Position numbers and translations under genes: made by a program
The notes under the pieces: generated by a model
What the model saw: only the letters and a program-made list of their open reading frames with translations
Told to the model about the DNA's origin: nothing
Database searches by the model: none
In this document: positions 15,451 through 18,048 of the stretch, piece after piece
Layout of the letters: each line of letters begins with the position of its first letter
Numbering within the stretch: the stretch's first letter is position 1
Origin: Gemmatimonadota bacterium
Lineage (GTDB): Bacteria > Gemmatimonadota > Gemmatimonadetes > Longimicrobiales > Gaopeijiaceae
Assembly: GCA_022560615.1 (NCBI GenBank)
Contig: JADFSR010000018.1
Span: 1 to 64,000 of the forward strand
Reading direction: 5' to 3'
Length of the DNA: 64,000 bases

Positions 15451-15700
15451 GGCGTTTGACGTCGCGTGACGCCGCTCTCCCGCTCGGGCCCTCAGAAAGC
15501 GCTGTCGCGCCGAGCGTGAATGGCACTATCGTGGGAAGCGACGGGCCCGGCCCCTACGGGGACACTCCGGTGAGCACTGACATGCTCGCCTCCGCGTCGG
15601 GAGCGCCTGTCCGTCCGTTACCTCACACGGCTCATGGAGACATGGCACCGAATTGTCCTGATGCAGTATGATGAAAGGACGCTATGGACCAAGGGATCAA

Positions 15701-15922
15701 ATGACGATTGACGAGCTGGAGCAAGAAGTACTGAAGCTCTCGGCGGAGGAGCGCGCCCGACTCGCCGAGCGCATCATATCCAGCCTAGATAGCGAGGCCG
15801 AGATTGAGCGAGAGTGGCTCGCGGAGGTCCGGCGCCGAGATGCCGAGTTGGACTCGGGTGACGTTGCCGGCATCCCGCTTGAGGACGCCCTCACCTCGAT
15901 ACGCTCGCGCTTCGGGTGGTAG
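15701..15922 (+). CDS. Addiction-module antitoxin (TIGR02574-like)
   Basis: 73-aa acidic protein: MTIDELEQEVLKLSAEERAR, LAERIISSLD, EREWLAEVRRRDAELDSGDV, IPLEDALTSIRSRFGW. This is the standard layout of the putative addiction-module component family, in which a helical dimer domain is followed by a tail that wraps the toxin. A start at 15668 is possible, but 15701 has a better ribosome-binding site (AAGGGA). The stop overlaps the start of the RelE/ParE toxin gene. Predicted to neutralise the toxin and repress the pair. Confidence 0.88.
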   Translation: MTIDELEQEVLKLSAEERARLAERIISSLDSEAEIEREWLAEVRRRDAELDSGDVAGIPLEDALTSIRSRFGW

Positions 15923-16209
15923 AAGTCATCGTCCACCCTGCCGCACTGGCAGAGTTGACGGAAGCATCAGCCTTCTACGAGGAGCGAGCTCCGGGCCTCG
16001 GCCGAGACCTTTTCGAAGAGGCTGTGCGGGTCTTCCAACTCATCGGCGAGAACCCGAGCATCGCAGCGGAGTTCGAAGAGCCGTACCGACGGTATCTGTG
16101 TCGGCGGTTCCCGTTCAGCGTTGTGTATCGGGAAAGTCGCGGAGGTGTCCGTGTGCTTGCCGTGATGCATCAGCGGAGGCGTCCGGGGTACTGGAAGTCA
16201 AGCGACTAG
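15916..16209 (+). CDS. RelE/ParE-family toxin
   Basis: 97 aa, GTG start inside the last codons of the antitoxin gene. The fold signature is VIVHPAALAELTEASAFYEE, LGRDLFEEAVRVFQLIGENP, YRRYLCRRFPFSVVYRES and VRVLAVMHQRRRPGYW. The C-terminal HQRRRPGYW matches the ParE-like subgroup, which usually targets gyrase or ribosome-bound mRNA. Together with the upstream gene it forms a complete type II toxin-antitoxin module. Confidence 0.9.
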   Translation: MVEVIVHPAALAELTEASAFYEERAPGLGRDLFEEAVRVFQLIGENPSIAAEFEEPYRRYLCRRFPFSVVYRESRGGVRVLAVMHQRRRPGYWKSSD

Positions 16210-16463: not shown

Positions 16464-16931
16464 ATGTCCGACGTCATCTACACCGCCGACATCAAGATCA
16501 AGCGTCTCAAGGGTCCGCACCGCCACGCGTGGCTTCCCGCGCACGACGGACCCGTCGAGTTCGGCGTGCACAGCGCGATCGCAGCCCACTACGGGGTCGA
16601 GCCCGAACGCGAGATCACGACCACTCTCGACTATGTGATGGCCGCCACGGGCGGCTGACTAACGGGAACCTTCGGAGGCGCGCTGGAGGCGCGCGGAATC
16701 AATGCGAGTGACGGAGCCCTGACGGCGGATGTGCGGGGCGAGGTCGAGAAGGAAGACGACGGCGTGATCGTGATCCGCCGCATACATGTGACGTATCGGC
16801 TGGAGGCGGGGGAGGAGCACCGGGAGACCATCGAGCGCGTGCACGGCTTCCATGCCGAGAAGTGCCCTGTCTACCGATCGATCCGTAGCTCGATCGACAT
16901 CACGACGGAGTACACGCTGGATGACGCGTAG
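16464..16931 (+). CDS. OsmC-family peroxiredoxin-like protein, candidate selenoprotein (in-frame UGA at 16656-16658)
   Basis: A single frame runs from ATG 16464 to TAG 16929 and is broken only by UGA at codon 65. Before it: PHRHAWLPAHDGPVEFGVHS and TTTLDYVMAATGG. After it: LTGTFGGALEARG, VIRRIHVTYRLEAG and AEKCPVYRSIRSSI. In OsmC/Ohr proteins the peroxidatic Cys lies exactly at the position of this UGA and the resolving Cys in the CP(V/I) motif (here Cys134). A GC-rich hairpin follows 25 nt later. The simplest reading is selenocysteine at the catalytic site, giving a 155-aa thiol/seleno-peroxidase that reduces organic peroxides. The alternative is a nonsense mutation (Cys TGC/TGT to TGA), giving a dead gene. 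It lies upstream of class I aldolase on the same strand. Confidence 0.75.
16671..16698 (+). promoter_or_regulatory. Candidate bacterial SECIS hairpin
   Basis: Upper stem GCGCGC (16678-16683) pairs perfectly with GCGCGC (16689-16694) around the 5-nt loop UGGAG. A lower UUC/GAA helix (16671-16673 with 16696-16698) is separated by an asymmetric internal loop. The apical loop begins 25 nt after the UGA and has G at its second position. This fits the known bacterial SECIS constraints on distance, stem length and loop G. GC-rich coding DNA forms such hairpins by chance, so the position is the main support. Confidence 0.6.
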
Positions 16932-16998: not shown

Positions 16999-18048
16999 GT
17001 GTTGACCGTTACTCAGCCCCCAGCGGCATCGTCGCTCGCAGAGATCGCCCGAGCGCTCGTCGCGGACGGCAAGGGCATCCTTGCCGCGGACGAGAGCCAT
17101 CCAACGATCGAGAAGCGCTTCCGGACGATAGACGTTCGATCAACGGAGGAGGACCGGCGCTCGTACCGCGAATTGCTCTTCACGGCCCCCCAAATCGAGC
17201 AGTATATCAGCGGAGTGATCCTGTTCGATGAGACGACGGACCAGGTCGATGCGTCGGGCACACAGCTGGTCGACCTACTGAAGGCTCGCGGGATTATTCC
17301 AGGCGTGAAGGTCGATCGTGGGGCCAAGCCGCTGGCAAAATCTCCGCGCGAGAAGGTGACCGAAGGTCTGGATGGACTGCGCGAGCGCCTCCATGACTAT
17401 CGCGAGAAAGGTCTTCGTTTCACGAAGTGGCGCGCAGTCATCGCCATTGGCGACGCACTTCCCACGCCCTACTGCATTCGCGCAAACGCAGATGCGCTAG
17501 CTCGATACGCAGCGCTCTCGCAGGACGAGGGGCTGGTCCCGATCGTGGAGCCGGAGGTGCTCATCGACGGCGATCATACGATCGAACAGTGCTACGATGT
17601 GACTGAAGCCACTCTCCACTACGTCTTCGATGTGCTCCACCAACACCGCGTTGATATGGACGCCATGCTTCTCAAACCGAACATGGTGCTGTCGGGAAAG
17701 AGCTGCCCGGATCAGGCAGAGGTCGAGGTCGTCGCGGACCTAACGGTGCGGTGCCTGCTGAACTCGGTCCCGGCGGCGGTTCCCGGCATCGTCTTTCTTT
17801 CGGGTGGGCAGACTTCCGAGCAGGCGACGGAACGGTTGAACGCGATGAACGCTCGCGCGACCGAGGCGCCGTGGCAGTTGAGCTTCTCGTACGGTCGGGC
17901 GCTGCAAGAAGCGCCCCTCAGTGCCTGGCGGGGGGACCCCGCCAACACCGAGGCGGCACAGCGCGCGCTGTGCCACCGAGCGAGGCTCAACGGCGCCGCC
18001 CGGTACGGGCGATACGCGCGGGAGATGGAGAGCGAGGTCGAGGCGTAG
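16999..18048 (+). CDS. Fructose-bisphosphate aldolase, class I
   Basis: Cleaves fructose-1,6-bisphosphate to dihydroxyacetone phosphate and glyceraldehyde-3-phosphate through a Schiff-base lysine. 349 aa with KGILAADESHPTIEKRF, GVILFDETTDQVDASG, PGVKVDRGAKPL, RFTKWRAVI (Lys), the catalytic-Lys segment MLLKPNMVLSGK, and GIVFLSGGQTSEQATERLNA near the end. This is the plant/animal-like class I family, which occurs in scattered bacteria. GTG 16999 has AAGGAATGAG upstream; TTG at 16984 or 17002 are alternatives. It is convergent with the SDR gene, only 4 bp apart. Confidence 0.93.
   Translation: MLTVTQPPAASSLAEIARALVADGKGILAADESHPTIEKRFRTIDVRSTEEDRRSYRELLFTAPQIEQYISGVILFDETTDQVDASGTQLVDLLKARGIIPGVKVDRGAKPLAKSPREKVTEGLDGLRERLHDYREKGLRFTKWRAVIAIGDALPTPYCIRANADALARYAALSQDEGLVPIVEPEVLIDGDHTIEQCYDVTEATLHYVFDVLHQHRVDMDAMLLKPNMVLSGKSCPDQAEVEVVADLTVRCLLNSVPAAVPGIVFLSGGQTSEQATERLNAMNARATEAPWQLSFSYGRALQEAPLSAWRGDPANTEAAQRALCHRARLNGAARYGRYAREMESEVEA

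What the first reader, a model, noticed from the sequence alone, without database searches (positions are those of the whole stretch)
16464..16931. OsmC-family gene with one in-frame UGA exactly at the peroxidatic cysteine: probable selenoprotein
Seen: the frame from 16464 to 16931 is continuous except for UGA at codon 65, and protein similarity continues without a frameshift on the far side. Known: in OsmC/Ohr proteins this position is the peroxide-reacting Cys, the second Cys (CPV) is kept here, and Sec replaces catalytic Cys in several redox families; OsmC-like selenoproteins have, to my knowledge, been reported from marine metagenomes. Inference: Sec insertion, helped by a hairpin whose loop starts 25 nt after the UGA with a G in its second position. 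A simple nonsense mutation would be unlikely to hit this codon and leave the downstream 90 codons intact.
Basis: partly seen in the sequence, partly recalled or inferred. Interest (0 to 1): 0.88.

Follow-up and report, generated by a model that had tools for sequence, protein, structure and literature searches.

The report
Selenocysteine-containing OsmC-family redox protein
This gene uses an internal stop codon (UGA) to insert the selenium amino acid selenocysteine at the reactive site of an OsmC-type peroxide-handling protein, and every relative found in its bacterial phylum (Gemmatimonadota) does the same, so it is a real selenoprotein of a little-described OsmC subfamily.

Summary
Confirmed. 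The frame 16464-16931 encodes a 155-aa OsmC-family protein with one in-frame UGA (16656-16658, codon 65) exactly where OsmC proteins carry the peroxide-reacting Cys; the second Cys (C134-P) is kept. The genome has a complete selenocysteine pathway: tRNA-Sec, selA, selB and selD (selD itself contains a UGA). All 89 homologous loci examined, from Gemmatimonadota, Acidobacteria and Actinomycetota records, have TGA at this codon, while the codon of C134 drifts freely between TGC and TGT. Selection on protein continues past the UGA (dN/dS about 0.1-0.3). A 7-bp hairpin with a GGA loop 26 nt after the UGA fits the published bacterial SECIS model. It keeps pairing through two compensating changes and freezes the codons that encode it. 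In 395 Gemmatimonadota genomes the gene goes with selA (108/115 versus 174/280), and the seven exceptions have tRNA-Sec and/or selB. No Cys form of the subfamily was seen. OsmC-like selenoproteins have been known since 2005 (UxxT motif). This one is a separate subfamily (UxxG; far below the NCBIfam OsmC_like_Se cut-off), often with two UGA paralogues per genome. It is a new member of a known kind. Peroxidase activity and actual Sec insertion remain untested.

The parts
16464..16931 (+). OsmC-family selenoprotein gene, 155 aa with Sec at codon 65, ATG to TAG
16656..16658 (+). in-frame UGA read as selenocysteine (position of the OsmC peroxidatic Cys)
   Evidence: TGA in 89 of 89 homologous loci; aligned with the catalytic Cys of 1ukk and the Cys of 1ml8
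16678..16694 (+). bacterial SECIS hairpin: 7-bp stem (16678-16684 with 16688-16694), GGA apical loop 16685-16687
   Evidence: 99.6% of cells paired in 40 sequences, two pairs with compensating changes; codon freezing
16863..16868 (+). second Cys (C134) and Pro135 of the OsmC CP motif, probable resolving Cys
   Evidence: Cys and Pro in 74 of 75 aligned proteins, the remaining row being a truncated fragment; aligned with the CPV of 1ukk

Best explanation
The gene encodes an OsmC-family thiol/selenol redox protein in which selenocysteine is inserted at UGA-65. Shown: a complete Sec pathway in the genome, strict conservation of TGA at this codon, purifying selection on both sides of it, and a conserved, covarying SECIS hairpin just downstream. 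Inferred: SelB carrying Sec-tRNA binds the hairpin at 16678-16694 and decodes UGA-65 as Sec. The protein folds as an OsmC/Ohr domain (predicted). The Sec65 selenolate reacts with an organic or other peroxide to give a selenenic acid, Cys134 then attacks to form a selenenylsulfide, and a cellular dithiol restores the enzyme. The first step (Sec insertion at this codon) is close to certain; the peroxide substrate and the reductant are less so.
For: tRNA-Sec with UCA anticodon; selB 332.9 bits against cut-off 242; selD 386.5 bits with its own in-frame UGA; selA 541.5 bits. TGA at the site in 89/89 loci, while 42 of the same genes use TGA as their terminator and 12 of 26 long ORFs in the window end in TGA, so TGA is not reassigned genome-wide. 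dN/dS mostly 0.1-0.3 both before and after the UGA. Hairpin: C-G to U-A and G-C to A-U swaps, 0 of 500 shuffles reach the observed covariation, all slides lower; relative codon entropy 0.15 inside against 0.72 outside, p 0.001; meets the loop, stem, spacing and energy limits of the bSECIS model. Association with selA: Fisher p 9e-12, odds ratio 9.4; all seven selA-negative carriers have tRNA-Sec and/or selB. AlphaFold2 pLDDT 95 and Foldseek hits to OsmC/Ohr structures.
Against: No direct evidence of Sec in the protein (no mass spectrometry or 75Se). The Glu that is conserved in characterised Ohr/OsmC active sites (my knowledge) aligns with Leu55 here, with an invariant Asp56 next to it, so the peroxide chemistry may be altered. 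The hairpin is not exceptional in energy in the window sequence alone, and a competing fold exists, although it lacks comparative support. The compensating changes represent few evolutionary events (about one each).
Confidence: 0.96

Rival explanations
1. Nonsense mutation or pseudogene: UGA is a real stop and the downstream 90 codons are a decaying remnant.
For: Only that a UGA is present.
Against: The same TGA in 89/89 loci from records of three phyla and in two paralogue clades; dN/dS mostly 0.1-0.3 downstream; C134-P conserved.
Confidence: 0.01
2. Genome-wide reassignment of UGA to an ordinary amino acid (code 4 or 25 type).
For: None beyond the in-frame TGA.
Against: 12 of 26 long ORFs in the window end in TGA, and 42 of the 89 OsmC genes themselves terminate in TGA; a tRNA-Sec and the selA/B/D genes are present; the in-frame UGA sits precisely at the catalytic Cys.
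Confidence: 0.005
3. Regulated read-through or UGA-Cys misreading: the site is decoded mainly as Cys (or termination gives a short functional peptide), the hairpin having another role.
For: In some organisms UGA-Sec codons are partly decoded as Cys when selenium is low (general knowledge); the residue occupying the site in ordinary OsmC proteins is Cys.
Against: No TGC/TGT form was seen in any carrier although the Cys134 codon alternates freely; linkage with selA/selB/tRNA-Sec; the hairpin fits the bacterial SECIS model.
Confidence: 0.02

Closest known systems
OsmC-like selenoprotein of the Sargasso Sea and GOS metagenomes (COG1765/PF02566, motif UxxT; PMC1088965, PMC2398784, PMC13188914)
   Same: OsmC family with Sec in place of Cys and a bacterial SECIS just downstream.
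   Different: The motif here is UxxG (U-L-x-G-T) in all members. The sequences of the earlier family were not available here for direct alignment.
NCBIfam NF041052 OsmC_like_Se, 'OsmC-related (seleno)protein'
   Same: The NCBIfam model matched by most members (20 of 24).
   Different: 20.9 bits for this protein against a cut-off of 95, so outside the family as curated. A third UGA-bearing OsmC group in this phylum (motif UTSM) is nearer to it but also below the cut-off.
OsmC/Ohr organic hydroperoxide reductases (1ukk, E. coli OsmC 1qwi, Ohr 6ebg)
   Same: Predicted fold, two-Cys arrangement with Sec at the first and Cys-Pro at the second.
   Different: Sec instead of Cys; about 12-18% identity in the structural alignments; the usual conserved Glu aligns with Leu55 here.

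Membership tests
Bacterial selenoprotein | In-frame UGA at a redox-active Cys position, conserved in homologues | tested here: met
   89/89 loci TGA; aligned with the catalytic Cys of 1ukk
Bacterial selenoprotein | selA, selB, selC (tRNA-Sec) and selD in the genome | tested here: met
[quoted passage not shown]
   GGA or UGGAG loop, 6-7 bp stem, spacing 25-26 nt, centroid -11.9 kcal/mol; covariation
Bacterial selenoprotein | Selenium present in the protein | not testable with these tools
   needs 75Se labelling or mass spectrometry
OsmC/Ohr superfamily (PF02566) | Profile match above cut-off and OsmC fold | tested here: met
   55.9 bits against 27.5; Foldseek OsmC/Ohr hits with probability 1.00
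OsmC/Ohr peroxidases | Two redox Cys (first replaced by Sec), second in a Cys-Pro motif | tested here: met
   U65 in 75 of 75 and C134-P135 in 74 of 75 proteins, the other being a truncated fragment
OsmC/Ohr peroxidases | Conserved active-site Glu ten residues before the first Cys (family knowledge) | tested here: inconclusive
   Leu55 at that column, invariant Asp56 next to it
NCBIfam NF041052 OsmC_like_Se | Score above the curated cut-off (95 bits) | tested here: not met
   20.9 bits
OsmC-like selenoprotein with UxxT motif | UxxT motif | tested here: not met
   G68, three residues after the Sec, is invariant, giving UxxG; motif quoted from PMC2398784 and PMC13188914
OsmC peroxiredoxin subfamily TIGR03562 | Score above the cut-off (85.8 bits) | tested here: not met
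   21.6 bits

The most novel reading that the evidence does not exclude
An OsmC subfamily that exists only in the selenocysteine form (no Cys counterpart) and has duplicated into two Sec paralogues kept together across Gemmatimonadota. This would make it a selenium-obligate branch with chemistry that Cys cannot support, and a switch from Cys to Sec separate from that of the other OsmC selenoprotein group in the same phylum.
Probability: 0.4. Interest if true: 0.6.

Novelty: new member of a known kind. Interest (0 to 1): 0.45.

Why it matters
Most selenoprotein families have abundant Cys homologues and a sporadic Sec form. Here a whole OsmC subfamily, present in about 30% of the Gemmatimonadota genomes sampled (115 of 395) and also in Acidobacteria and Actinomycetota records, appears to be Sec-only, in two paralogues. 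It is likely to be truncated or missed by annotation, because it lies far below the cut-off of the curated OsmC selenoprotein model. It makes the value of Sec over Cys in an OsmC active site directly testable, and it offers a clean natural case of coding sequence and SECIS structure constraining each other.

Tried and rejected
Rfam at E 1 over the region: no match. phmmer of the single protein against the PDB: none; the alignment profile was needed. Plasmid collection, tblastn: no match. Searching the Acidobacteria and Actinomycetota phyla around L107 and L109 was not possible. Rival helix (columns 14-20 with 28-34), which is part of the lowest-energy fold of the window sequence: only 81% of cells paired and no covariation clearly beyond shuffles, rejected. 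OsmC copies with '2 TGA' in the NF041052 search: the second TGA is the ordinary terminator, not a second Sec. Gene neighbourhood: aldolase synteny holds in the same genus at 90% identity, otherwise only weak matches of about 28-31% to aldolase-like sequences, so context gives no function.

Full report
Observation. The window codes on the + strand for ATG 16464 to TAG 16931, open but for TGA at 16656-16658, codon 65. Read through, it is a 155-aa OsmC protein (PF02566, 55.9 bits, cut-off 27.5), with the match spanning the UGA. In a profile search of the PDB the UGA falls on the first, reactive Cys of T. thermophilus OsmC (1ukk) and on the Cys of 1ml8, and C134-P135 falls on the second Cys-Pro of 1ukk. 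AlphaFold2 on 24 homologues gives mean pLDDT 95, and Foldseek returns OsmC and Ohr structures with probability 1.00.

Machinery. The genome that holds the window has tRNA-Sec (C15; 66 bits, cut-off 47; ARAGORN anticodon tca), selB (C38; 332.9 bits, cut-off 242), selD (C1; 386.5 bits, cut-off 125, with its own in-frame TGA near the N-terminus, in GAG-U-ACK) and selA (C36; 541.5 bits, cut-off 268). The nearest named records are Gemmatimonadetes MAGs, and the family also includes records named Longimicrobiales.

Conservation. In the family search 85 of 121 genomes have a homologue, and every match that covers the codon strongly has one TGA. All 89 loci examined codon by codon, including two Acidobacteria records and one Actinomycetota record, have TGA, never TGC or TGT. 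Across 395 genomes of the phylum, all listed strong matches carry TGA, and follow-up of the weaker ones showed TGA in each true subfamily member that covers the codon. The non-TGA matches are remote ordinary OsmC genes; the one read in full has TGC at this place (L147). In the same alignment the codon of C134 is TGC 42 times and TGT 32 times. dN/dS is mostly 0.1-0.3 on both sides of the UGA. TGA still works as terminator: 42 of these 89 genes end in TGA, as do 12 of 26 long ORFs in the window.

SECIS. The 60 nt after the UGA line up without gaps in 74 distinct sequences. A 7-bp hairpin, 5' GCGCGCU - GGA - GGCGCGC 3' in the window, begins 20 nt after the UGA with its loop starting 26 nt after it. 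In 40 aligned sequences 99.6% of its cells pair. Pair 26-36 switches C-G to U-A and pair 27-35 switches G-C to A-U with no broken intermediate; 0 of 500 shuffles reach the covariation score and every slid control is lower. RNAalifold finds the same helix and nothing else. These swaps accompany protein changes: GALEAR (GCG...GCG), GVLEAR (GTG...GCA) and GALEVR (GCA...GTG); each time one Ala becomes Val, the other Ala takes a synonymous GCA that restores pairing. Near-invariant residues inside the hairpin use almost one codon (relative entropy 0.15) against 0.72 elsewhere, Mann-Whitney p 0.001. The element meets all four published bSECIS limits (PMC13188914). Caveats: energy alone is unremarkable (z -0.76), each swap is probably one event, and the shuffles do not allow for relatedness.

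Co-occurrence. Of 395 Gemmatimonadota genomes, 115 carry the subfamily (strong match). 108 of these have selA, against 174 of 280 without the subfamily (odds ratio 9.4, p 9e-12; relatedness not corrected). The seven carriers without a selA hit are mostly fragmented MAGs, and all seven have tRNA-Sec and/or selB.

What it is. Two UGA paralogue clades occur, commonly together in a genome: A (ATGGULTGTFGG type, the window's gene) and B (AAGULLGTLNGALEVR; in this genome C10:68602-69042). They group together in a tree (92/92), apart from ordinary OsmC and from a third UGA-bearing OsmC group (GAUTSMTIALYARR) found in another family of the class; long branches make the depth unsure. OsmC-like selenoproteins were first reported from the Sargasso Sea (PMC1088965) and are listed with motif UxxT (PMC2398784, PMC9312934, PMC13188914). 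The present clades are UxxG and the window's protein scores 20.9 bits against the 95-bit cut-off of NCBIfam OsmC_like_Se. In the phylum only 1 of 395 genomes has a match over that cut-off, a copy without UGA. No paper found links Gemmatimonadota to OsmC selenoproteins; the library is open-access only.

Mechanism. Established knowledge of Ohr/OsmC: the first Cys reduces a peroxide, the second forms a disulfide with it, and a dithiol resets it. By analogy Sec65 attacks the peroxide and Cys134 resolves a selenenylsulfide. Invariant residues include Y6, G17, R20, G34, H36, D56, U65, L66, G68, T69, R125, C134 and P135. The usual Glu is Leu55 here, with Asp56 next to it, so substrate and catalysis may differ; the peroxidase role is likely but not shown.

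Verdict. It is a new member (a separate, apparently Sec-only subfamily) of a known kind.

Noticed in passing
G000:C10:68602-69042 (L052): Second OsmC selenoprotein (clade B) in the same genome, about 40% identical, UGA at the same codon and its own version of the hairpin.
   Followed up: yes
L018 (G000:C1:137397-138323): selD of this genome is itself a selenoprotein gene with one in-frame UGA near the N-terminus.
   Followed up: partly
L166-L178 (family f4 of the same class): A third, separate group of UGA-bearing OsmC genes (GAUTSMTIALYARR) with a different conserved hairpin (AUCGCGCUGUAUGCGCGA), below the NCBIfam OsmC_like_Se cut-off.
   Followed up: partly
L166 (G332:C47), positions 1003-1380 and 1487-1954: Two different OsmC selenoprotein genes of separate groups sit next to each other in one genome.
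   Followed up: no
window 15668-16209: Type II toxin-antitoxin pair (Unstab_antitox and ParE-like) just upstream on the same strand; not found near the OsmC gene in the 40 relative loci checked.
   Followed up: partly
window 16999-18048: Class I fructose-bisphosphate aldolase directly downstream, synteny kept in the same genus (90% identity).
   Followed up: partly
L108:3060-3713: DsbA-like thioredoxin-fold gene on the same strand right after the OsmC selenoprotein gene in an Acidobacteria record, a possible redox partner.
   Followed up: no
G384, G048 and other fragmented genomes: A few genomes carry the OsmC selenoprotein and tRNA-Sec and/or selB but no selA hit; probably assembly gaps, possibly a divergent SelA.
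   Followed up: partly
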